A stretch of 33,270 bases of DNA from Pseudomonadota bacterium (GTDB lineage: Bacteria; Pseudomonadota; Gammaproteobacteria; Acidiferrobacterales; Acidiferrobacteraceae): assembly GCA_021794275.1 (NCBI GenBank), contig JAJYRD010000032.1:1-33270 (forward strand), read 5' to 3'. Below, piece by piece: positions 6,336 to 25,331 of the stretch. The notes below the pieces were generated by a model. The model did not search any database, was not told where the DNA came from, and saw only the letters and a list, made by a program, of their open reading frames with translations. Position 1 is the stretch's first letter, and the number at the start of each line of letters is the position of its first letter. Position numbers and translations under genes: made by a program.

Positions 6336-6637
6336 ACTAAATCGCTGCCTTGAGTGGGAGATGAGGTGTCCGGCCGGTCGACCAGCCCGTAGTTCAGCAG
6401 TTTCTTGCGCAGCGTGTTGCGGTTGATGCCGAGGATCTTGGCCGCCTGGCATTGGTTGTGCCCGACTTGGCGCATGACCGTTTCTATGAGCGGGGCCTCG
6501 ACCTCGCCGATGACCGTCTCGTACAAGGATGTCCCCGGGCACTGGCCGTTCAGATCCGCGAAATAGCGCTCCACGGCAAGCCGCACACAGCCCGCGAGGG
6601 GTCCTCGTCCCGCCCTTACAGGTTTGTCGTCGCTCAT
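6332..6637 (-). CDS. fis: DNA-binding protein Fis
   Basis: A 101-residue nucleoid-associated protein that bends DNA and regulates rRNA, tRNA and many other genes. The C-terminal helix-turn-helix is clear: [19 protein letters not shown] near residues 62-80. The family segment [12 protein letters not shown] is seen here as [16 protein letters not shown]. It directly follows dusB with an ATGA overlap, the classical dusB-fis operon, and its stop overlaps purH. Length is the usual 95-105 residues. Confidence 0.96.
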
Positions 6638-7614
6638 GCGGCGATTCCCGCAGGGCCGTGCCCGAAGAACTCTTCCAGGAGGCGGCGCTGCTCTTCGACC
6701 GTGCCTGCCTGATTCACGGTGTGTCGAAATGCCGCGCCCCCGGTGAGCCCCTTGCTATACCAACCGATATGCTTGCGCGCCACGCGTACCCCCGTGTGTT
6801 CGCCGTAGAATGCGTAGAGCGTCTCCAGGTGTCCCATCAGCACGGTGTACAGCTCCGTGCGGCTTGGCGGCGCAAGTTTTTGCCCGGTCTTCAGGTAATG
6901 ATCGATCTCGCGGAAGATCCAGGGCCGTCCCTGGGCTGCGCGTCCGATCATGAGGCCGTCGGCGCCGGTCGCATCAAGCACCGCTCGCGCCTTCTCGGGG
7001 CTATCGATATCGCCGTTGGCGATCACTGGGATGCGCACTGCGGACTTGATCGCGGCGATGGTCTCGTATTCGGCCTCGCCCTCGAAGAAGCAAGATCGGG
7101 TGCGCCCGTGGACCGCGAGTAGCGCCACCCCGCAGGACTCGGCGAGCCGCGCGATCTCGACCCCGTTGCGATGACCGCGGTCCCAGCCGGTTCGGATCTT
7201 CAGGGTGACAGGCACGTCCACGGCTGAGACCACCGCTGTAAGGAGCTGCGCGACCAGCTTGGGGTCGCGCAAGAGCGCGGAGCCCGCCATGACATTACAG
7301 ACCTTTTTGGCCGGACAGCCCATGTTGATGTCGATGATCTGAGCGCCGTTTTCGACGTTGTAACGAGCGGCGTGGGCCAACATGGCGGGGTCGGCGCCGG
7401 CGATCTGGATGCACTTGGGTTCGGGTTCCCCCTCGTGATCGGCACGCCGACGCGTCTTTTCGGAGCCGTAGAGCAGCGACTGCGAGGTCACCATTTCGGA
7501 GACCGCCATTCCAGCGCCCAGGGTCCGGCAAAGGATACGGAAGGGGCGGTCTGTGACCCCAGCCATGGGCGCCACGAAGAGCGTGTTCTTGAGCGTATAG
7601 GATCCGATCTGCAT
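6634..7614 (-). CDS. dusB: tRNA-dihydrouridine synthase B
   Basis: A 326-residue FMN-dependent TIM-barrel enzyme that reduces uridine in the D-loop of tRNA. It has the N-terminal [15 protein letters not shown], the DUS signature [11 protein letters not shown] with the catalytic cysteine, TLKIRTGWD, and the FMN-phosphate site [13 protein letters not shown]. It precedes fis with an ATGA overlap, the diagnostic DusB context. A 60-base gap separates it from the upstream DUF3426 gene and contains the hairpin at 7622-7637. Confidence 0.97.
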
Positions 7615-15610: not shown

Positions 15611-15638
15611 TTGACAAGGCATCAGCCTTGTTTATGAT
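15611..15638 (+). promoter_or_regulatory. sigma-70 promoter of groES-groEL
   Basis: TTGACA (15611-15616), a 16-base spacer, and TATGAT (15633-15638) form a near-consensus housekeeping promoter. The last base of the -10 box coincides with the first base of the CIRCE operator. Between the two boxes lies a 7-bp inverted repeat ACAAGGC-ATCA-GCCTTGT (15614-15631) followed by TTTAT. That repeat could double as a weak terminator for fxsA or act as a second operator. Confidence 0.85.
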
Positions 15639-16060: not shown

Positions 16061-17740
<1,680 letters not shown>

Positions 17741-17762: not shown

Positions 17763-17796
17763 GGGGCAGGGGCCGGAAGGCTCCTGCCCCTTTTTT
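17763..17796 (+). terminator. intrinsic terminator of groES-groEL
   Basis: A 12-bp stem (17763-17774 with 17779-17790, one G-T pair) is closed by a GGAA tetraloop and followed directly by six T residues (17791-17796). It lies 22 bases after the groEL stop. Confidence 0.95.
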
Positions 17797-17928
17797 GTGT
17801 GCGCCTGCCAAGTGGCGGACGAAGCGGCGCGCTATCTTCTGTTATGCTTGCGCCTGTGCTCGTGACGGCGCGACGAGCGGGGCTGACTTTTCCGCCACGC
17901 CGAGGCCGGCATGGCCTGGGAGGCTCTC

Positions 17929-18633
17929 ATGGGGGTACGCAAGGCGGGGACGTGGTTACGCAGGGCCCGCGTGACGGCTGGCGTGGCTTTAATCGTTGCC
18001 TATTCCGTGGTTTCTTATCGCTCGAACGTGGCCGGGCACGCCGGCGCGCTCGGTGCGCTGTTCGCGTTCCTGCCCCTGCTCGGACTGTCCTTGGGCGCAG
18101 CCTGGGAAGGCCGCCCGCGCCCGCTTTGGCTCACCCTATGGGCCCTCGCCTGCGCGGGTCTCTGGCATTACCGTATCCTGATTGGGGCCCATTACTCATG
18201 GGCCTATCTCGTCGAGGACGTAGGCATGTTGACGCTCCTCTGCAGTCTCTTCGCGCGCACCCTGAAGTCCCCGCGCGTGCCGCTCATTTCGCGCCTGTCT
18301 GAGCTCGTGCACGGTCCCTTAAGTCCGCGGCTCGCGCACTACACGAGGCGTGTGACGCAGCTTTGGGCGGCACTCTTCGGTATCATGGCGATCGTTTCCA
18401 TTCTCCTTTTTCTCGTGGCTGGGGTCCGTGCGTGGGGTTTCTATGCCAACGTGCTCACCTGGCCCATTATGGCGCTCGTGTTCATTGGCGAATACTTGGT
18501 CCGCCGGCTCGTCATCCCCGCGCAGGAGCGTGCAGGCTTCCTGCAGGTGGTCCTCGCTGGCAGCCGGTACTGGCGCCATTTGGTCGAGGCCGACTCCTGT
18601 GAGCCGTCGTTGCGCGGACGGACCGTGCGATGA
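17929..18633 (+). CDS. COG4648-type polytopic membrane protein of aryl-polyene-like clusters
   Basis: About 234 residues with roughly six predicted membrane helices, for example GALFAFLPLLGLSLGAAW, LWLTLWALACAGLWHY, LWAALFGIMAIVSILLFLV and WPIMALVFIGEYLVRR. The closing RRLVIPAQERAGFLQVV and the position directly before an acyl ligase match the COG4648 membrane protein found in aryl polyene clusters; its function is unknown. The start at 17929 has GGGAGG five bases upstream; an in-frame ATG at 17911 is possible. The stop overlaps the ligase start (ATGA). Confidence 0.75.
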   Translation: MGVRKAGTWLRRARVTAGVALIVAYSVVSYRSNVAGHAGALGALFAFLPLLGLSLGAAWEGRPRPLWLTLWALACAGLWHYRILIGAHYSWAYLVEDVGMLTLLCSLFARTLKSPRVPLISRLSELVHGPLSPRLAHYTRRVTQLWAALFGIMAIVSILLFLVAGVRAWGFYANVLTWPIMALVFIGEYLVRRLVIPAQERAGFLQVVLAGSRYWRHLVEADSCEPSLRGRTVR

Positions 18634-19985
18634 GTACCGTCCCCCTCGTCCGGGGCGCCGACCCGACCGCTCCGTTCGCCTTCTATAATGGCGCGCCCCG
18701 TTCCGTGGCACAGTTTCTGCGCGATGTGTCACGTCTCGCGGCCTTGCTGCCTCCGAAGGGGCCGGTCTTGAATGCCTGCGCCGATCGCTATCATTTCGTC
18801 GTAGGCCTAGGCGCCGCCTTGGTCGCGGACCGGATGACCGTTCTGCCGGCAGCCTATGCAGCTGAGACGATCAAGGCCCTGAGCGCGCAAATGGCCGATC
18901 TGCATGCCCTGAGCGACGGGGATACCAAAATCGCTCTGCCCATGGTGCGTTTTCCCCGGCTCGAACCCGAGGCCCGCGCCGGGTCCCTCCCGCCTATGCC
19001 GCACATCCCCTCCGGGCGGCACGCGGTTATGGTTTTTACCTCGGGCACGACGGGCGCGCCCGTAGGCCATATCAAGACATGGGGCTCGTTGGTTACGGGG
19101 GCCCGCGCCGAGGCCGGCCGGCTGGGATTTGGCGATGGAGCGGCCTGGTCGCTGGTCGCGACCGTACCGCCTCAGCATATGTATGGGCTCGAGTCATCCG
19201 TCATGCTGGGCCTGCACGGCGGCGCGGTGCCACACTCGGGGCGCCCTTTTTATCCCAAGGACATCATCGAGGCGCTGGCGTCGGTCCCGCGCCCGCGCCT
19301 GTTGGTGACCTCGCCGGTCCATCTCCGGGCGCTTTTGACGAGTGGTGTGGCCACGGCGCCACTGGACGCGATCCTCTGCGCGACCGCGCCGCTCCCGCTG
19401 GCCTTGGCCGAGCAGGCCGAGGAGCGGCTGGGGGCGCCTTTGCACGAAATCTACGGGGCGACGGAGGCTGGTCAGATCGCGAGTCGCAGACCGACGCGCG
19501 AGGAGGGCTGGAGGCTTTTTCCGGGCCTTGTCCTGGAGCCGCGAGGGGAAGGGTTCGTGGTGCGGGGCGGTCATGTGCTGATACCGGCCCCTCTGAACGA
19601 CATCGTCGAGCCGATGGGCCCGACGTCCTTCCGTTTCCACGGCCGCGGCGCCGACATCGTGAACGTGGCCGGCAAGCGCAGTTCCATCGCCTTTCTCGAG
19701 CAGCAGCTCCTTGCCATTCCGGGGGTGCTCGATGGCGCCTTTTACATGCCGGACGAGGATCTGGCGGGCCCGGTCGCTCGTCTGACGGCGTTCGTGGTGG
19801 CCCCCGGCTTGACCGCTGCGGCGATCGAGGCGGCGCTGCGTGCCCGTATCGACCCCGTATTCTTGCCTCGTCCGCTCGTGCTCGTGGATGCGCTGCCACG
19901 ACTTGCGACCGGCAAACTGCCCCTAGAAAGACTCCGGGGGCTCCTCGCATCCAGCGCCCGCGATGTCGGTCACGGACATGGTTGA
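18630..19985 (+). CDS. AMP-dependent acyl-CoA/ACP ligase, aryl-polyene ApeH-like
   Basis: A 451-residue adenylate-forming enzyme. The phosphate loop VFTSGTTGAP lies at about residues 135-144 and is followed by HIKTWGSL, a pattern typical of polyene-cluster ligases. EIYGATEAGQIASR is near 272, and the C-terminal catalytic lysine lies in ATGKLPLERL near 429. It is shorter than fatty acyl-CoA ligases and probably activates an aryl or acyl acid for loading onto a carrier. It lies between the COG4648 gene and a dehydratase, both overlapping, so the five genes 17929-21507 form one operon. The substrate is not inferable from sequence. Confidence 0.85.
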   Translation: MSTVPLVRGADPTAPFAFYNGAPRSVAQFLRDVSRLAALLPPKGPVLNACADRYHFVVGLGAALVADRMTVLPAAYAAETIKALSAQMADLHALSDGDTKIALPMVRFPRLEPEARAGSLPPMPHIPSGRHAVMVFTSGTTGAPVGHIKTWGSLVTGARAEAGRLGFGDGAAWSLVATVPPQHMYGLESSVMLGLHGGAVPHSGRPFYPKDIIEALASVPRPRLLVTSPVHLRALLTSGVATAPLDAILCATAPLPLALAEQAEERLGAPLHEIYGATEAGQIASRRPTREEGWRLFPGLVLEPRGEGFVVRGGHVLIPAPLNDIVEPMGPTSFRFHGRGADIVNVAGKRSSIAFLEQQLLAIPGVLDGAFYMPDEDLAGPVARLTAFVVAPGLTAAAIEAALRARIDPVFLPRPLVLVDALPRLATGKLPLERLRGLLASSARDVGHGHG

Positions 19986-20283
19986 GACCGGCCGCTTGTT
20001 GTTCCCCGCTGAGCACGCAGCCTTCCCTGACCATTTCCCTGAAAATCCGCTGGTGCCAGGTGCCCTGCTTCTCGATGAGACCCTGGCGGTCCTCGCTGGG
20101 GCGCGCGGCCTTCCCTACGAGGCCCTCGAGGTGCGACAGGCAAAGTTCGTCCAGCCAGTACGCCCCGACCAGGTTATCGACATCTCTTGGGAGGACGCGG
20201 GGAAAGGGTTTATGGATGTCAGCCTACGGGTGGCGGATGTCACCGTAGCCGTCCTCACCGTGGGCCTCAGGGCCCGGCCATGA
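19963..20283 (+). CDS. FabZ/ApeI-like hotdog 3-hydroxyacyl-ACP dehydratase
   Basis: A 106-residue single hotdog domain. FPDHFPENPLVPGALLLDE at about residues 21-39 matches the FabZ active-site pattern HFPxxPxxPG, with H24 as catalytic His and D38 or E39 as the acid. It should dehydrate a 3-hydroxyacyl chain on a carrier protein. It overlaps the ligase by 23 bases if started at 19963 (an ATG at 19978 would shorten the overlap), and its stop overlaps the next gene (ATGA). It is shorter than FabZ (about 150 residues), as in ApeI-type proteins. Confidence 0.82.
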   Translation: MSVTDMVETGRLLFPAEHAAFPDHFPENPLVPGALLLDETLAVLAGARGLPYEALEVRQAKFVQPVRPDQVIDISWEDAGKGFMDVSLRVADVTVAVLTVGLRARP

Positions 20284-20774
20284 ATGGGCGCGCCGATCCC
20301 GACTTGGGGGTGGTGCGAGGCGCTGTGTCGCGCTCGGAGATTTGCGCCCTGCTCCCGCACGGTGACCGCATGTGTCTTCTCGCCTCGGTGCGCGCCTGGG
20401 ACGCCGAGGGCATAGCATGCCTAGCCCTAAGCCATCGCGACCTGGCCAATCCGCTTCGCGCCCGGGACCGTCTGGGCGCCGGGTGCGCCATTGAGTACGC
20501 GGCGCAAGCGATGGCAGTTCACGGCGCGCTTTGCGCAAGCGGCCCCGCGCGACCGGGCGGCGCCCTGCTCGCGGTTCGCGACATCCGCTTCTCCGTCGGG
20601 CGTCTGGATGATATCGAGGAGGATCTTGTGATCGACTGCCGTGCCTTGGCTCAAGATGCCCGCGGGGCGATGTATCGGTTTCAGGTGGGCGCCGCTGGCC
20701 GGCCGCTCGTATCCGGGCGCGCGACCGTACAATTCGTTGCCCTCGCGGGTCTCAACCGTGCCGACAAGGGTTAG
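20280..20774 (+). CDS. ApeP-like hotdog 3-hydroxyacyl-ACP dehydratase (COG4706)
   Basis: A 164-residue hotdog protein. LLPHGDRMCLLASVRAWDAE near residue 22 and CAIEYAAQAMAVHGAL near 72 match the COG4706 dehydratases of aryl polyene clusters, with the active-site His in LLPH and Glu in IEYAAQ. It probably works with the preceding ApeI-like protein, since in E. coli the two dehydratases of the pathway are reported to act together. Start overlap ATGA with the previous gene; the end overlaps the ketoreductase by 17 bases. Confidence 0.8.
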   Translation: MNGRADPDLGVVRGAVSRSEICALLPHGDRMCLLASVRAWDAEGIACLALSHRDLANPLRARDRLGAGCAIEYAAQAMAVHGALCASGPARPGGALLAVRDIRFSVGRLDDIEEDLVIDCRALAQDARGAMYRFQVGAAGRPLVSGRATVQFVALAGLNRADKG

Positions 20775-21507
20775 CGCGAGGGGCACGAGCCTGCGCCGCG
20801 CGCTCGTGACCGGTGCGAGCGGTGCCATAGGCGCGGCCATTTGCCGCCGTCTGGCGGCCGACGGCTACCATCTCATATGCCACGCCCACAGCCGCCCGGA
20901 CGACGCCCGGCAACTCGTCTCCGAGCTGAAGAACGGCGGCGCAAGCGCGACCTTGTGTGTGTTTGATGTTGCAGACGCGCATACGACGGCCGACGCGCTC
21001 GCCCCGCTCGTAGCCGAGGCGCCCATCCAGGTTCTCGTCCACAACGCCGGTGTCCACGCCGACGCGGTCCTCGCCGGGATGACGCTCGAGCAATGGCGTC
21101 GCCCGCTCGATGTTGCCTTGGATGGCTTTTTTCACGTCGCCCGGCCGTTGCTCTTGCCCATGATAAGGACCCGCTGGGGTCGCATCGTCAACGTCACCTC
21201 GGTGGCGGGGCTCCTTGGGAACCGTGGTCAGGCCAACTACGCTGCCGCCAAGGCCGGACTCCACGCTGCCGGCAAATCCCTCGCGCTCGAGGTCGCAAGC
21301 CGCGGCATCACAGTAAACGCGGTCGCGCCCGGCATCATCGCCACGCCCATGAGTCAGGTCTTCGGCCAAGACGACATCGCGCGGCTCGTGCCCATGGGGC
21401 GCGCCGGCGAATGCCGCGAGGTCGCGGATCTGGTGGCTTTTCTGGTCTCCGATCAGGCCGCCTATATCACAGGCCAGGTCATATCGATCAACGGCGGCAT
21501 GATCTAG
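20758..21507 (+). CDS. FabG/ApeQ-like 3-oxoacyl-ACP reductase (short-chain dehydrogenase)
   Basis: A 249-residue SDR with the NADPH motif TGASGAIGAAI near residue 18, NAG at 96-98, and the catalytic S148, Y161 and K165 (YAAAK). The C-terminal GQVISINGGMI is FabG-like. The fourth catalytic residue, normally Asn in a VNLDGFF context, reads VALDGFF here, so the Asn is replaced by Ala. The GTG start at 20758 is chosen because upstream sequence belongs to the overlapping dehydratase. It should reduce 3-ketoacyl chains in the polyene-like pathway. Its last 20 bases overlap the convergent glycosyltransferase gene. Confidence 0.88.
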   Translation: MPTRVSARGTSLRRALVTGASGAIGAAICRRLAADGYHLICHAHSRPDDARQLVSELKNGGASATLCVFDVADAHTTADALAPLVAEAPIQVLVHNAGVHADAVLAGMTLEQWRRPLDVALDGFFHVARPLLLPMIRTRWGRIVNVTSVAGLLGNRGQANYAAAKAGLHAAGKSLALEVASRGITVNAVAPGIIATPMSQVFGQDDIARLVPMGRAGECREVADLVAFLVSDQAAYITGQVISINGGMI

Positions 21508-22261
21508 ATCCGCGACGGCGGCACAGCAAGCGCGGGATACGATAGAGCAGCCCGAGGAGCAGGCGTATGTGCATGCTGGTGAGCAGAATATTGTCGCGCA
21601 CATAATGGAAATGTGAGACGCCGCCGTCGGCTTTACCCGGATACCGCACAGGGGCATCAATGTTGAGGGCAGGAACTCCTTCCCAGAAGAGGCGCACGGC
21701 AGCCTCCGGATCGAAGTCGAAGCGGCGCATGGAGCGGCGCGCGGTCATGATCCTGAAGAGGGGTTCGATCGGATAGATGCGAAATCCGAAAAGTGAGTCC
21801 CCGATGTGGCGGCCGCAGGTTTCGAGGTTCGCGCATGCGTTCGATAGGCGCCGCCCATAGACGCGCACCCGGGGCGCGTCGGAGGCGAAGACCGGCGCGC
21901 CCAGGATCATGGCATCGGGGTTCGATCTCGATGCCTCCATGAATGTCGGGATGAGATCCGCCGGGTGCTGGCCGTCGGAGTCCATGCATAGGACGTGGGT
22001 GTATCCCTCGGCTCGGGCGCGCTCGAGCCCCAAAAGCACCGCCGCCCCCTTGCCGCGGTTGCGGGTCCTCGTGATGACGAGCAGGCCGGCGTTATGGCGC
22101 GCCATATCCGCGAGTCCTTCGGCGGTTCCGTCCGTACTACCGTCCACGACCACCCAGACTGGCGCCCAATGCTGTAAGGCCACGGCCACGGTCCCATAGA
22201 CCTTGGATCCGGGGTTGTAGCTTGGGATCAGTACGAGGTGTGTTGCGGAAGGTGCTGGCAT
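21488..22261 (-). CDS. family 2 glycosyltransferase, polyene-cluster type
   Basis: A 257-residue GT-A glycosyltransferase. It begins HLVLIPSYNPGSKV, has the nucleotide-sugar strand VVVDGSTDGTAEGL near residue 38, NRGKGAAVLLGL, and the metal-binding DSDGQHPADL near 94. It resembles dolichyl-phosphate mannose synthase-like GT2 enzymes and ends with a basic tail rich in Arg. There is no clear transmembrane domain except a weak hydrophobic stretch near residue 225. It lies 54 bases downstream of the halogenase-like gene and converges on the ketoreductase, a combination seen in aryl-polyene and xanthomonadin loci. The sugar donor and acceptor are unknown. Confidence 0.82.
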   Translation of the reverse strand: MPAPSATHLVLIPSYNPGSKVYGTVAVALQHWAPVWVVVDGSTDGTAEGLADMARHNAGLLVITRTRNRGKGAAVLLGLERARAEGYTHVLCMDSDGQHPADLIPTFMEASRSNPDAMILGAPVFASDAPRVRVYGRRLSNACANLETCGRHIGDSLFGFRIYPIEPLFRIMTARRSMRRFDFDPEAAVRLFWEGVPALNIDAPVRYPGKADGGVSHFHYVRDNILLTSMHIRLLLGLLYRIPRLLCRRRGSRSCRR

Positions 22262-22315
22262 CTGGCTATGGAAATAGTCAACGGGTCGCGGTGCATTCGA
22301 TGGTCGGTTCTGCCC

Positions 22316-23635
22316 TCATTTGCTTCCGGCCGTCAGAGGCGCTTCTTCGGAAAGCCGGCGCTGCTCGCGGCGTTTGCGCAAGGCTCGCACGGACTGGCGA
22401 AAATGGTAGAGCGAATGCAGGTAGTACAAGCCCTTGAAGGCCGCCAGGGAGCGCCAGATGGGGGTGTCCCCGAAGATGTCGCCGGCCAGCACGGACAAGA
22501 GCGCCTCCTGGACTCGAAATATGTTGCGTGGACCCATGAAGAGGTCGCGCATCGTCGGGTGGTTGACGCGGTAGATGAACCACGAAAACTCGCGCGGCCC
22601 TTGGCGGATCTTCCGGTCGTAGGCGCGTAGCGCCCTTTGGGCCTCATCCGGTCGACTGAGACAGGTGTCAACCGCGTCGGCCGCCAGGAAGCCGCCGTGC
22701 ATGGCCAGCATCACGCCCGATGAGAACACGGGGTCTATGAACGAAAAGGCATCGCCGAGGAGCAGGTGGTTTACTCCATACGAGCGTTCGCAGCCGTACG
22801 AGAAATTGCCGGTTGCGGATACCTCCGAGACCAGCTTGGCCCCGGCGAGGCGCTCGGCAAGCGCTGGACAAAGGGCGATGGTGTCGCGGAAAAAGGCCTC
22901 CACGGGCTTATTGCGCCGTTTCAGGTAATAGGGCCAGACTACGGCGCCCACGCTCGTGGTGCCGTCGGCCAGCGGTATGAACCAAAACCAGCCATGTTCG
23001 AACCAGAAGATCGAGATATTGCCCTCGGCGCGGCCATCGTTGCGTGTGGCGCCCCGGAAATGTCCAAAAAGCGCCGCGCTGTTGTGTCGGGGATTGCGCC
23101 GCTTCATGTGGAAACGGGTGCCGAGAAAGGTGTCGCGCCCGGACGCGTCGATAACGAATCGCGCCTCGAAATCCTCGACGCCTCCATCCTCATGGCGGGC
23201 GCTCACGCGAGCCCCTGCTCCTTCTTCGAGAAAGGCGACATCCTGCACCCGGCAGCCTTCCCGGGTCACGGCCCCTTTGGTTTTTGCGTTGCGAAATAGG
23301 ATGGCGTCGAATTCGGCGCGGCGCACCTGGTAGGCATAGGGCATGTCCTTGTTCCAGGCTTCGGCGAATTGAAACTCCTGTCGAGGCTTTTCGTGCCAGG
23401 GGGATACAAACTCCGCCCCCCACTTCATCATGCCTATGTCACGCACCGCCTCCCCGACACCTAGGCGCTCGAGCAGCGGCAGGTTGGCCGGGAGCAGCGA
23501 TTCGCCGATGTGAAACCGCGGGTGATGGCTCTTTTCCGCGATGACGACATCGTAGCCCCGTTCGGCGAGCAGGGTCCCCGCGGTAGCGCCGCCCGGGCCC
23601 CCTCCGATCACGAGAACGTCACATTGTGTAGCCAT
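22316..23635 (-). CDS. flavin-dependent oxidoreductase of the tryptophan-halogenase-like family
   Basis: A 439-residue FAD enzyme. The N-terminal Rossmann motif VIGGGPGGATAG is followed by FHIGESLLPANLPLLE near residue 41. K71 in GMMKWGAEF occupies the place of the halogenase catalytic lysine. GWFWFIP at 215-221 matches the GWxWxIP motif that distinguishes flavin-dependent halogenases, and GDAFSFIDPVFSSG at 294-307 is the second FAD site. Halogenation of an aryl polyene, as in brominated xanthomonadins, is a reasonable hypothesis; related proteins can instead be desaturases or reductases. It is the first gene of a two-gene operon with the glycosyltransferase. Start at 23635 with AAAGGGA upstream. 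Confidence 0.82.
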   Translation of the reverse strand: MATQCDVLVIGGGPGGATAGTLLAERGYDVVIAEKSHHPRFHIGESLLPANLPLLERLGVGEAVRDIGMMKWGAEFVSPWHEKPRQEFQFAEAWNKDMPYAYQVRRAEFDAILFRNAKTKGAVTREGCRVQDVAFLEEGAGARVSARHEDGGVEDFEARFVIDASGRDTFLGTRFHMKRRNPRHNSAALFGHFRGATRNDGRAEGNISIFWFEHGWFWFIPLADGTTSVGAVVWPYYLKRRNKPVEAFFRDTIALCPALAERLAGAKLVSEVSATGNFSYGCERSYGVNHLLLGDAFSFIDPVFSSGVMLAMHGGFLAADAVDTCLSRPDEAQRALRAYDRKIRQGPREFSWFIYRVNHPTMRDLFMGPRNIFRVQEALLSVLAGDIFGDTPIWRSLAAFKGLYYLHSLYHFRQSVRALRKRREQRRLSEEAPLTAGSK

Positions 23636-23925: not shown

Positions 23926-24669
23926 TCAGGTCACGAACTGGCTGATCGCCCAAAACTGCAGAGCCGCGCCGAGCAGCGTCAGAATGTGGAAGGCGGCGTG
24001 AAAGTATTTCACGCGGTCGCGTATCAGAAAGACCACGCCGACACCGTAGCAGGCGCCGCTCAGAGCCAGGGCCGTGAGCACGGCAGGCGGGGTATGTCGG
24101 AAAAAAGGCGCGGCGCCCAGTATCGTGATCCAGCCCATGACCTGGTAGAGGTGCTCCAAACGGCGCATGTAGCGTCCTGGCTCCCCCCAAAGGAGCAGGA
24201 TCGCGAGCCCGGCCAGGATCCATTCCGCCACCACTAGGGCCGCCCCTGTCGTGCCGCGAACCATGAGCGCCGCGACGGGGGTGTAGGTGCCGGCTATGAA
24301 CAGCGCGATGGCCATCCGATCCAGGCGCTGAAACCGGTCCTTCAAGGGGCCCGCGGGCAGGATGTGGTAGGCCGCCGACACCGTGTACAGGCCGATCATG
24401 GCCAGCGAAAAGACCGCGGCGCAGAGGAGTTTTGGAAGATCGCCGGTCTGTGCTGCAAGTCGCGTGAGCGTCGCGCCCGCGCCCAGGGCCGCGACGGCCC
24501 CCGCCGCATGTAGGGCGGCATTGACCCGCTCTTCTTCGCGCGACTGACAACGCTCGGCGGGCGCAGGTGGCAGGACGTCGTAGAACTCCAGCGCCGCCCC
24601 CGTAGGGGGGTCCACGTCGAGCCCGTTCATATGCAGCGCTTCTTGTGCCCCCGCGCGTCTTTTCATCAT
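23926..24669 (-). CDS. hemolysin III / TrhA (PAQR-like) family membrane protein
   Basis: A 247-residue protein with seven predicted membrane helices after a soluble N-terminal extension of about 65 residues. Family motifs are EERVNAALHAAGAVAAL (first helix with His), TVSAAYHIL in the third helix region, and a final HAAFHILTLLGAALQFWAI with paired His residues, as in metal-binding PAQR/HlyIII proteins. TrhA-type proteins affect membrane lipid homeostasis; the haemolysin name is historical. The ATG at 24669 overlaps the YgjP stop. The N-terminal extension is longer than usual, and ATG at 24630 is an alternative. Confidence 0.85.
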   Translation of the reverse strand: MMKRRAGAQEALHMNGLDVDPPTGAALEFYDVLPPAPAERCQSREEERVNAALHAAGAVAALGAGATLTRLAAQTGDLPKLLCAAVFSLAMIGLYTVSAAYHILPAGPLKDRFQRLDRMAIALFIAGTYTPVAALMVRGTTGAALVVAEWILAGLAILLLWGEPGRYMRRLEHLYQVMGWITILGAAPFFRHTPPAVLTALALSGACYGVGVVFLIRDRVKYFHAAFHILTLLGAALQFWAISQFVT

Positions 24670-25331
24670 AGCGACAAGCGCGTCCCGCTCTCGCGAAGTC
24701 GCAGGCGGCGCGTCTCGTAGTCTGGCATGACCCGCCCCATCTCGCGCCAAAACGGGGTTCTGTGGTGCGGGGCGATCAGGTGGCAGAGCTCATGGGCGAT
24801 CACATAATCGAACAAGTCTGCCGGGACGAGCATAAGCCTCCAGTTCAGGCTGATCGTCCCGTGCGGCGAGCAGCTGCCCCATCGCGTCTTCTGGCCGGCG
24901 ATGCGAATCCGTTTGGGCGCCCGTCCGACCAGTGGCGCGTAATGGATGATACGGGCCAGCGCGTGGTGTCGCGCCGCCTCGCGGTACCAGAACTCCAATG
25001 CCCCGCGCGCCTGCACCTCGTTGGCGGCCGCGACTCGCAGAAGCTCGCCGTCTCGCCGGACCTCCGGTGTCCCCGATCGGTAGCAGAGGCGTAGTTGCAG
25101 GGTCTCGTCCAGGTACCGCAGACTCAATCCATCGGCGAACACAGGGACCCGCGGCGCCTCGTTCAGCCGTTTCAAGGTCCGCTCGATCCATCGCGCCTTG
25201 GCCTTGAGAAAGGCCTCGATGTCGGCCTGTTGGGTGGCCGCCGGGACGAGTAGGCGCATGGCGCCCGAGGGGTTGATCTGCAAGCAGAGGGTGCGACGCT
25301 TGCGACTGCGGACAAGGGCATAGGGCGGCAC
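24666..25331 (-). CDS. YgjP-like (DUF45/SprT-type) zinc metallopeptidase
   Basis: A 221-residue protein. The core has KTRWGSCSPHGTISLNWRL near residue 145 and the zinc motif HELCHL at 180-185, with a third His at 190 (HEXXHX5H) followed by FW, the pattern of YgjP/DUF45 proteins. The substrate is unknown. A GTG at 25331, two bases after the rubredoxin stop, is the likely start; the frame remains open further upstream but only through rubredoxin coding sequence in another frame. Its stop overlaps the hemolysin III gene start. Confidence 0.88.
   Translation of the reverse strand: MPPYALVRSRKRRTLCLQINPSGAMRLLVPAATQQADIEAFLKAKARWIERTLKRLNEAPRVPVFADGLSLRYLDETLQLRLCYRSGTPEVRRDGELLRVAAANEVQARGALEFWYREAARHHALARIIHYAPLVGRAPKRIRIAGQKTRWGSCSPHGTISLNWRLMLVPADLFDYVIAHELCHLIAPHHRTPFWREMGRVMPDYETRRLRLRESGTRLSL

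What the first reader, a model, noticed from the sequence alone, without database searches (positions are those of the whole stretch)
17929..23635. Compact aryl-polyene/xanthomonadin-like cassette lacking ketosynthase and carrier protein
Five overlapping plus-strand genes (COG4648 membrane protein, acyl ligase, two distinct hotdog dehydratases, FabG-type reductase) converge on a glycosyltransferase and a halogenase-like flavoprotein. From memory of the E. coli ape cluster, the membrane protein-ligase-dehydratase genes and the dehydratase-reductase genes occur in this order, but there they are separated by glycosyl/acyltransferase, thioesterase, LolA-like, exporter and ketosynthase genes. Here those genes are absent and the two blocks are fused into one operon. 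Chain extension must come from other loci, or the product differs from known aryl polyenes.
Basis: partly seen in the sequence, partly recalled or inferred. Interest (0 to 1): 0.72.

Follow-up and report, generated by a model that had tools for sequence, protein, structure and literature searches.

The report
Aryl-polyene pathway split between two loci
In a bacterium that is likely an uncultured Acidiferrobacter, the genes of a predicted yellow-pigment (aryl polyene) pathway sit at two separate genome sites, each holding core genes that the other lacks, and one half, which may have been acquired from a distant relative, is predicted to work together with the other.

Summary
In detail: 17929-21507 (+) holds homologues of E. 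coli ApeG, H, I, P and Q, without ketosynthase or carrier protein, converging on a glycosyltransferase (the N-terminal half of ApeJ) and a flavin halogenase. The missing parts exist: contig C74 of the same genome carries chorismatase (XanB2 type), MipA, ACP, acyltransferase (the other half of ApeJ), LolA, MMPL exporter, ketosynthase and chain-length factor in one row. The layout is genus-wide: the cassette follows groEL in all 13 genomes where that place is assembled, and in a single-contig relative the loci are 1.43 Mb apart. The sister genus keeps one cluster, in which the two cassette blocks are separated by acyltransferase-LolA-MMPL-KS-CLF; 59 of 61 named loci with enough sequence also hold the KS near the ligase. 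Locus-B genes group with the sister genus at full support. The cassette genes look more betaproteobacterial by identity and gene order, but trees do not settle this (AU p = 0.109). Best reading: one xanthomonadin-like pathway encoded by two complementary half-clusters, perhaps a mosaic left by reciprocal loss after horizontal transfer. The product is untested.

The parts
16076..17740 (+). groEL; left flank of the cassette
   Evidence: Sequence; directly upstream of the cassette in 13 of 13 genus genomes in which the place is assembled, window included
17763..17790 (+). intrinsic-terminator-like hairpin with T-run after groEL
   Evidence: 12-pair stem then TTTTTT (the total of 8 such sites in the region is not above the 6.3 expected by chance); similar stem and invariant T-run in an alignment of 11 of the 13 genus cassettes, G001 and G011 not given
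17840..17848 (+). possible extended -10 promoter element (TGnTATnnT) of the cassette
   Evidence: T, G, T, A, T and the last T are invariant in the 11 aligned sequences; the consensus is recalled; the sigma-70 scan did not flag it
17929..18633 (+). MEM: ApeG-like (COG4648) membrane protein
   Evidence: Profile hits E. coli ApeG, 2.5e-22, and none of the other 21 proteins; GGGAGG at 17918-17923
18630..19985 (+). LIG: ApeH-like AMP-forming acyl-ACP ligase
   Evidence: PF00501 and PF13193; profile hits ApeH, 2.4e-50
19963..20283 (+). DH1: ApeI-like hotdog dehydratase
   Evidence: Profile hits ApeI, 8.5e-13; H-F...P..P-G residues shared with ApeI; PF07977 is below its cut-off
20280..20774 (+). DH2: ApeP-like hotdog dehydratase
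   Evidence: Profile hits ApeP, 7.3e-8 without E. coli and 9.9e-22 in an iterated search; shared L-P-H...M.LL and E72; no Pfam, NCBIfam or PDB hit of its own
20758..21507 (+). KR: ApeQ/FabG-like ketoreductase (start uncertain: GTG 20758 or CTG 20791)
   Evidence: PF13561; ApeQ 277 bits, own FabG 233
21488..22261 (-). GT2: family 2 glycosyltransferase, equivalent of the N-terminal half of ApeJ
   Evidence: PF00535; profile hits ApeJ, about residues 10-250 of its frame, while the acyltransferase profile hits about 255-555
22316..23635 (-). HAL: flavin-dependent halogenase-like protein
   Evidence: PF04820; 14 PDB sequences match at E<=1e-10, 11 of them named halogenase, the others CmlS ('alkylhalidase'), ChlB4 and a flavoprotein/dehydrogenase; WFWFIP motif; Lys71 aligns with a Lys in the three alignments shown
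23926..24750 (-). HlyIII-family protein; first gene of the right flank
   Evidence: PF03006
24666..26554 (.). YgjP-like gene (-) and ferrochelatase (+); right flank
   Evidence: PF01863, PF00762; found near groEL in the sister genera

Best explanation
The cassette is one half of an aryl-polyene (xanthomonadin-type) gene set whose ketosynthase, chain-length factor, carrier protein, chorismatase, acyltransferase and exporter genes lie at a second locus on another contig, and the two halves are predicted to act together to make a probably halogenated aryl-polyene lipid. Shown: both loci, their gene content, their complementarity and their conservation across the genus. Inferred from the families: the chorismatase would make 3-hydroxybenzoate (or 4-hydroxybenzoate) from chorismate; LIG would load it on the locus-B ACP; KS and CLF would extend it with malonyl units; KR and the DH1:DH2 pair would reduce and dehydrate each cycle to give the polyene; HAL would halogenate the aryl head; GT2 and the acyltransferase (the two halves of ApeJ) would attach it to a lipid; LolA and MMPL would carry it out. 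Origin, inferred and less sure: the native cluster stayed at locus B, while the cassette either derives from a betaproteobacterium-like cluster that landed after groEL, each copy then losing what the other kept, or is the native blocks relocated. The conserved hairpin after groEL suggests that the cassette is transcribed from its own promoter.
For: Second locus C74:8657-16683 with chorismatase PF21168, MipA, PP-binding, Lip_A_acyltrans, LolA_3, MMPL, ketoacyl-synt and Ketoacyl-synt_2. Each of 12 profiles has its own ape gene in E. coli CFT073 as best hit. Genus: ligase in 12 of 13 relatives, KS in 13 of 13, chorismatase in 13 of 13; the one without ligase, G008, has a contig that ends 180 bp after groEL. 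Gene order groEL-MEM-LIG-DH1-DH2-KR><GT2-HAL in 13 of 13 mapped genomes, window included; nine locus-B maps run from chorismatase to CLF, eight with all eight genes and L115 with seven; no cassette gene was found in a locus-B map or the reverse. G005, one contig of 3,398,398 bp: LIG ends at 116,600, chorismatase starts at 1,547,732. Sister genus: LIG, KS and chorismatase within 10 kb on one contig in G014 and G016, MEM-LIG-DH1 and DH2-KR separated by LPLAT-LolA-MMPL-KS-CLF. Of 77 named loci outside the genus, 0 show DH1 next to DH2 by tblastn. Locus B keeps 5' neighbours found in the sister genus, and the cassette is absent after groEL in G015 and G014.
Against: No chemistry, expression or mutant. 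Counterparts of ApeK, ApeN, ApeR, ApeF, ApeD, ApeA and ApeB were not seen at either locus; the DUF3261 (ApeN) search found nothing but rang in no control, so it says nothing. A third locus (C38:46.8-57.3 kb) holds another KS, KS-like, KSIII-like, ACP and halogenase and could serve the cassette instead. On origin: AU tests do not reject genus and sister genus as one clade for cassette genes (concatenation p = 0.109; LIG p = 0.721 and DH2 p = 0.678, the held tree being the better one; KR p = 0.0909), nor the whole order as one clade (p = 0.173). HAL says nothing for a betaproteobacterial source: sister-genus copies outside the cluster (G016:C9, G017:C18) are 66-67% identical to it, named rows 62% at the median. 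The window genome is a 92.7% complete draft, so the distance in it is unknown. Four genus relatives show one in-frame stop in the chorismatase match, not examined.
Confidence: 0.74

Rival explanations
1. Simple relocation: the native MEM-LIG-DH1 and DH2-KR blocks were cut out of the ancestral cluster and rejoined after groEL, with no foreign genes; GT2 and HAL were picked up separately. The two loci still form one pathway.
For: LIG and DH2 trees with genus and sister genus held together are better than the free ones (by 5.35 and 4.96 log units; AU p 0.721 and 0.678); concatenation p 0.109. The sister genus has long branches in these genes, which can mimic separate origin. HAL has 66-67% identical sister-genus copies.
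Against: All six testable cassette-side genes have most named rows closer than the best sister-genus row, against none of eight locus-B genes. KR><GT2 convergence is seen in 17 of 77 named loci and in none of five order or sister-genus loci with KR next to GT2. The concatenated tree puts the sister genus with three order members at 97/92, away from the genus. The GT2 clade is rejected, p 0.0172, though the sister genus holds another GT2 class.
Confidence: 0.42
2. The cassette serves the third locus (C38), whose KS, KS-like partner, ACP and second halogenase make a different aryl or alkyl product; locus C74 is then a pathway with its own unknown ligase and dehydratases.
For: C38:46.8-57.3 kb has KSIII-like, BtrH_N/DUF4872, ABC transporter, ACP, KS, KS-like and halogenase genes; in G038 a further KS and ACP of lower identity lie between the ligase and DH1 of the polyene cluster.
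Against: In the sister genus, and in 59 of 61 named loci with enough sequence, the ligase block lies with a KS at least 42% identical to the C74 one. ACP and KS profiles have ApeE and ApeO as best hits.
Confidence: 0.07
3. The cassette is a stand-alone tailoring set that works on fatty-acid-synthase ACP and KS, with no aryl polyene made.
For: KR is only modestly closer to ApeQ than to the genome's own FabG (277 and 233 bits).
Against: Complementary polyene genes (KS and chorismatase) are kept in 13 of 13 genus relatives; LIG, DH1, DH2 and MEM profiles hit ape genes only.
Confidence: 0.05

Closest known systems
E. coli CFT073 aryl-polyene cluster apeA-R (C_RS05565-C_RS05650)
   Same: ApeG, H, I, P, Q, J (as two genes), E, L, M, O and C each have a counterpart
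   Different: One contiguous cluster in E. coli; here two loci. ApeJ is GT2 plus acyltransferase in one protein there, split over both loci here. No counterparts of ApeK, N, R, F, D, A, B seen at the two loci. Chorismatase, MipA and halogenase profiles hit none of the ape proteins.
Xanthomonadin clusters of Xanthomonas and the Lysobacter enzymogenes yellow cluster (PMC3691225, passages read)
   Same: XanB2-type protein, KS with KS-like partner, two dehydratases, KR, ACP, lipoprotein-carrier (LolA-like) gene, dolichyl-phosphate-mannose-synthase-like GT; a halogenase in Xanthomonas
   Different: The Lysobacter genes form one cluster of 17 ORFs without halogenase; here there are two loci and a halogenase
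Named clusters fetched here, mostly betaproteobacterial, also Acidithiobacillus (for example L149, L160, L175, L198)
   Same: MEM-LIG-DH1 and DH2-KR><GT2 modules, GT2 56-67% identical in the 17 convergent cases, HAL in some
   Different: All 74 with more than 356 bp after LIG hold the acyltransferase on the same locus; none shows DH1 next to DH2
Sister genus cluster (G014, G016, G017)
   Same: All eight locus-B genes are closest to it; same 5' neighbours in G014 and G016
   Different: Contiguous (G017 is broken by contig ends); LIG and DH1 in one reading frame in G014; other GT2 class on the same strand as KR; no halogenase in the cluster

Membership tests
Aryl-polyene (APE) biosynthetic pathway | KS (ApeO) and chain-length factor (ApeC) pair | tested here: met
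   At the second locus: KS profile hits ApeO, CLF profile ApeC; best PDB sequence match of KS is 6qsp, recalled to be an ApeO:ApeC structure
Aryl-polyene (APE) biosynthetic pathway | ACP, acyl-ACP ligase, two dehydratases, ketoreductase | tested here: met
   ApeE, H, I, P, Q counterparts, shared over both loci
Aryl-polyene (APE) biosynthetic pathway | Export and lipid attachment: MMPL, LolA, ApeJ (GT2 + acyltransferase), ApeG | tested here: met
Aryl-polyene (APE) biosynthetic pathway | ApeK thioesterase, ApeN (DUF3261), ApeR, ApeF | tested here: inconclusive
   None seen at the two loci; genome-wide only DUF3261 was sought, and that search rang nowhere, controls included
Aryl-polyene (APE) gene cluster | Genes contiguous in one cluster | tested here: not met
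   Two loci on different contigs; 1.43 Mb apart in G005 and 1.25 Mb in G009
Xanthomonadin-type pathway | XanB2-like chorismatase | tested here: met
   PF21168 (FkbO/Hyg5-like chorismatase), 1.3e-30; that XanB2 belongs to this family is recalled
Xanthomonadin-type pathway | Halogenase beside the pathway | tested here: met
   PF04820; PDB halogenases as best hits
Aryl polyene / xanthomonadin | Yellow aryl-polyene ester or lipid, brominated in xanthomonadin | not testable with these tools
   Needs extraction, absorption spectrum and mass spectrometry
Flexirubin cluster | FlxB reductase at curated cut-off | tested here: not met
   263 bits against a cut-off of 340

The most novel reading that the evidence does not exclude
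A mosaic pathway made by reciprocal loss: a foreign, betaproteobacterium-like aryl-polyene cluster landed after groEL beside a resident one elsewhere; each then lost the core genes the other kept, so that a foreign loading, reduction, dehydration and glycosylation half now depends on a native starter, carrier, elongation and export half, fixed across a whole genus.
Probability: 0.45. Interest if true: 0.72.

Novelty: new variant of a known kind. Interest (0 to 1): 0.52.

Why it matters
A cluster finder keyed on ketosynthases would be expected to call locus C74 a polyene cluster without ligase, dehydratases and reductase, and to pass over the window's cassette. If the mosaic reading is right, it is a natural experiment in mixing parts of a type II polyketide synthase: foreign dehydratases and ligase working with a native carrier protein and ketosynthase. 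The cut keeps presumed partners together (DH1 with DH2, whose E. coli counterparts match the two chains of PDB entry 6qsr; KS with CLF), which makes protein-complex boundaries in this pathway directly testable.

Tried and rejected
Rejected: that ketosynthase and ACP are missing from the genome. Set aside: read-through from groEL as the only way of expression, because a strong hairpin with T-run follows groEL and is conserved; partial read-through stays possible. Rejected: an assembly artefact, because the layout recurs in 12 relatives, among them a one-contig and a four-contig genome. Left open: relocation against horizontal transfer.

Led nowhere: NCBIfam and Pfam for MEM and DH2; PDB search for DH2; DUF3261; Rfam; the first CFT073 stretch missed the ape cluster; the KR tree holds a misplaced row, L170, with a branch of 10, and such rows also sit in the KR count; a test of genus plus named rows for locus B did not finish. 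The first DH1 profile was polluted by ligase frames and was rebuilt with a position limit beside the ligase. Two named loci lack KS in spite of 10 kb of downstream sequence (L173, L202), not followed.

Rows dropped before counts: in the trees ECOLI, L156, L222, L176 and G057 were left out and, where there were more than 40 named rows, every second one; the concatenations used 53 (cassette) and 49 (locus B) genomes that hold the needed genes with DH2 next to KR on one strand. One search uses the 9 to 13 genus genomes whose loci were fetched, and leaves G057 out. The 80 named loci are the best of 566 by likeness to a ligase alignment whose first row is the window's, which favours named rows in the ligase comparison.

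Not in print, as far as searched (listings only): Acidiferrobacter with aryl polyene: 0 papers; no title or abstract start on a split aryl-polyene pathway.


Full report
What was claimed.

The genes are MEM 17929-18633, LIG 18630-19985, DH1 19963-20283, DH2 20280-20774 and KR about 20758-21507, all plus, then GT2 21488-22261 and HAL 22316-23635 on the minus strand. Pfam finds an AMP ligase, a short-chain reductase, a family 2 glycosyltransferase and a tryptophan-halogenase-type flavoprotein; DH1 is just below its cut-off, and MEM and DH2 match nothing. Profiles built from relatives, with E. coli left out, were run on 18 ape proteins of E. coli CFT073 and four of the genome's own fatty-acid proteins: MEM, LIG, DH1, DH2 and GT2 each hit one protein only, ApeG, ApeH, ApeI, ApeP and ApeJ; KR hits ApeQ (277 bits) before its own FabG (233). 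The ape gene letters follow PMC8253772 (passages) and the order.

The missing half. The window is contig C8 of a 2.68 Mb draft (92.7% complete). A ketosynthase search of that genome gave five places. One, on contig C74, belongs to a compact run on one strand: chorismatase, MipA, ACP, acyltransferase, LolA, MMPL, KS, CLF. Profiles of six of these hit ApeE (ACP), ApeJ (acyltransferase; its C-half), ApeL, ApeM, ApeO and ApeC; those of chorismatase, MipA and HAL hit none of the 22 proteins. The KS has PDB entry 6qsp as its best sequence match, recalled to be an aryl-polyene ApeO:ApeC structure. The chorismatase is of the FkbO/Hyg5 family; a XanB2 homologue is needed for most of the pigment in Lysobacter, and 3-hydroxybenzoate restores it (PMC3691225, passages). 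No cassette gene shows up in a locus-B map, nor the reverse. HAL alone has a second copy in the genome, at C38.

The layout is a genus trait. Over 60 genomes, window genome included, the ligase was found at high identity in 12 of 13 same-genus relatives, the KS and the chorismatase in 13 of 13. The relative without ligase (G008) has groEL 180 bp from a contig end. Mapped by tblastn, the order groEL-MEM-LIG-DH1-DH2-KR><GT2-HAL is the same in 13 of 13 genomes, window included; nine locus-B maps run from chorismatase to CLF, eight with all eight genes and L115 with seven, and two more (L110, L131) are cut by contig ends. In G005, one contig of 3,398,398 bp, the ligase ends at 116,600 and the chorismatase begins at 1,547,732; in G009 the two lie 1.25 Mb apart on one contig.

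What the ancestor looked like. In the sister genus the same genes form one cluster: chorismatase, MipA, ACP, MEM, LIG, DH1, acyltransferase, LolA, MMPL, KS, CLF, DH2, KR, and a GT2 of another class (G014 and G016). Among 80 named loci fetched by a ligase alignment, 77 lie outside the genus; none shows DH1 beside DH2, 74 have the acyltransferase (the other three have at most 356 bp after the ligase), and 59 of 61 with at least 9.5 kb downstream have the KS; the exceptions are L173 and L202. So the cassette is what is left if acyltransferase to CLF are taken out of the sister-genus order, and locus B is what is left if MEM-LIG-DH1 and DH2-KR are taken out. Locus B keeps three upstream neighbours seen in G014 and G016, so it is probably the old place. 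The groEL place lacks the cassette in G015, where YgjP and ferrochelatase genes follow groEL directly, and in G014, where about 4 kb of other sequence comes first (the YgjP- and HlyIII-like genes of G014 were recognised by eye).

Where the cassette came from. Median identities of genus members were compared with three sister-genus genomes and with named rows, 58 of whose 77 titles I read as betaproteobacterial (titles). Cassette side, named rows above the best sister-genus row: MEM 69 of 69, LIG 76 of 77, DH1 70 of 74, DH2 59 of 59, KR 39 of 56, GT2 39 of 39. Locus B: chorismatase 0 of 16, MipA 0 of 9, ACP 0 of 69, acyltransferase 0 of 74, LolA 0 of 71, MMPL 0 of 70, KS 0 of 61, CLF 0 of 60. 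The named set was picked by ligase likeness, which flatters the ligase row. HAL does not take part: the sister genus has none in the cluster, but copies elsewhere at 66-67%, against a median of 62% for named rows. KR and GT2 converge in 13 of 13 genus cassettes and in 17 of 77 named loci (35 hold both genes; 20 have them as neighbours), but in 0 of the 5 order or sister-genus loci where they are neighbours. Trees: locus-B genes group genus and sister genus at 100 (KS; CLF, chorismatase, acyltransferase; concatenation). The cassette concatenation puts the sister genus with three order members (97/92) and the genus next to the named rows (89/81). Against transfer: holding genus and sister genus together costs 13.25 log units, p-AU 0.109; holding the whole order together, p 0.173; for LIG and DH2 alone the held tree is better than the free one (p 0.721, 0.678), for KR p 0.0909. 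Only GT2 rejects the clade (p 0.0172), and there the sister genus carries another class. I therefore keep transfer with reciprocal loss and plain relocation as near equals, leaning slightly to the first.

How it would work. Families and literature give the steps. In the passages read of PMC8253772, ApeH adenylates 4-hydroxybenzoate and loads ACP; ApeO with ApeC extends; ApeQ and ApeI and/or ApeP reduce and dehydrate; ApeD and ApeJ are proposed to attach the product, ApeM, ApeL and others to export it. E. coli ApeI and ApeP match chains A and B of one PDB entry, 6qsr, so the pair probably forms one complex; here their genes touch, and in none of the 77 named loci are they neighbours. DH1 keeps the H-F...P..P-G residues and DH2 the L-P-H and E72 columns shared with E. 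coli. HAL has the WFWFIP motif and a lysine that aligns with one in the three halogenase-type alignments shown; the roles of these residues are recalled.

Control of expression. A 12-pair hairpin with six T follows groEL, and beyond it a TGnTATnnT pattern is invariant in 11 of 11 aligned genus sequences (11 of the 13 cassettes were given), in the window about 80 bp before the start of MEM. The cassette therefore probably has its own promoter in spite of always following groEL. The promoter scan did not score this site.

Verdict. A known kind of pathway in a genus-wide two-locus arrangement that I found described nowhere in the searches named; the product, and the joint working of the halves, are predicted and untested.

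Noticed in passing
G000:C38:46.8-57.3 kb (L007:8785-19333): A third polyketide-type locus: KSIII-like, BtrH_N/DUF4872, ABC transporter pair, ACP, KS, KS-like, then a second halogenase 64% identical to the window's. In G038 a KS and ACP of lower identity lie inside the polyene cluster.
   Followed up: partly
G003:C64, G006:C85, G007:C126, G012:C25: Copies of the second halogenase in four relatives (one a fragment at a contig end) carry one or two in-frame stops in the match, so it may be decaying.
   Followed up: no
L118:8560-10560 (G014): In the sister genus the ligase and the ApeI-like dehydratase share one open reading frame, a likely fusion.
   Followed up: partly
L173 and L202: Two named MAG loci with the ligase block but no KS or CLF found in 10 kb downstream; L202 goes from MMPL to DH2-KR><GT2. 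Possible further split or eroded clusters.
   Followed up: no
L115 (G009), acyltransferase near 6546-7561: The acyltransferase match of locus B falls into two pieces in different frames in one relative; frameshift or sequencing error.
   Followed up: no
G018-G059: Only 18 of the 42 order- or class-level relatives have a close KS (E below 1e-50); the rest have weaker, FabF-like matches or none, so the pathway is patchy outside the family.
   Followed up: no
15611-15638 (+): The one sigma-70-like promoter of the scan (11 of 12 matches) lies before the small gene upstream of groEL, probably groES.
   Followed up: no
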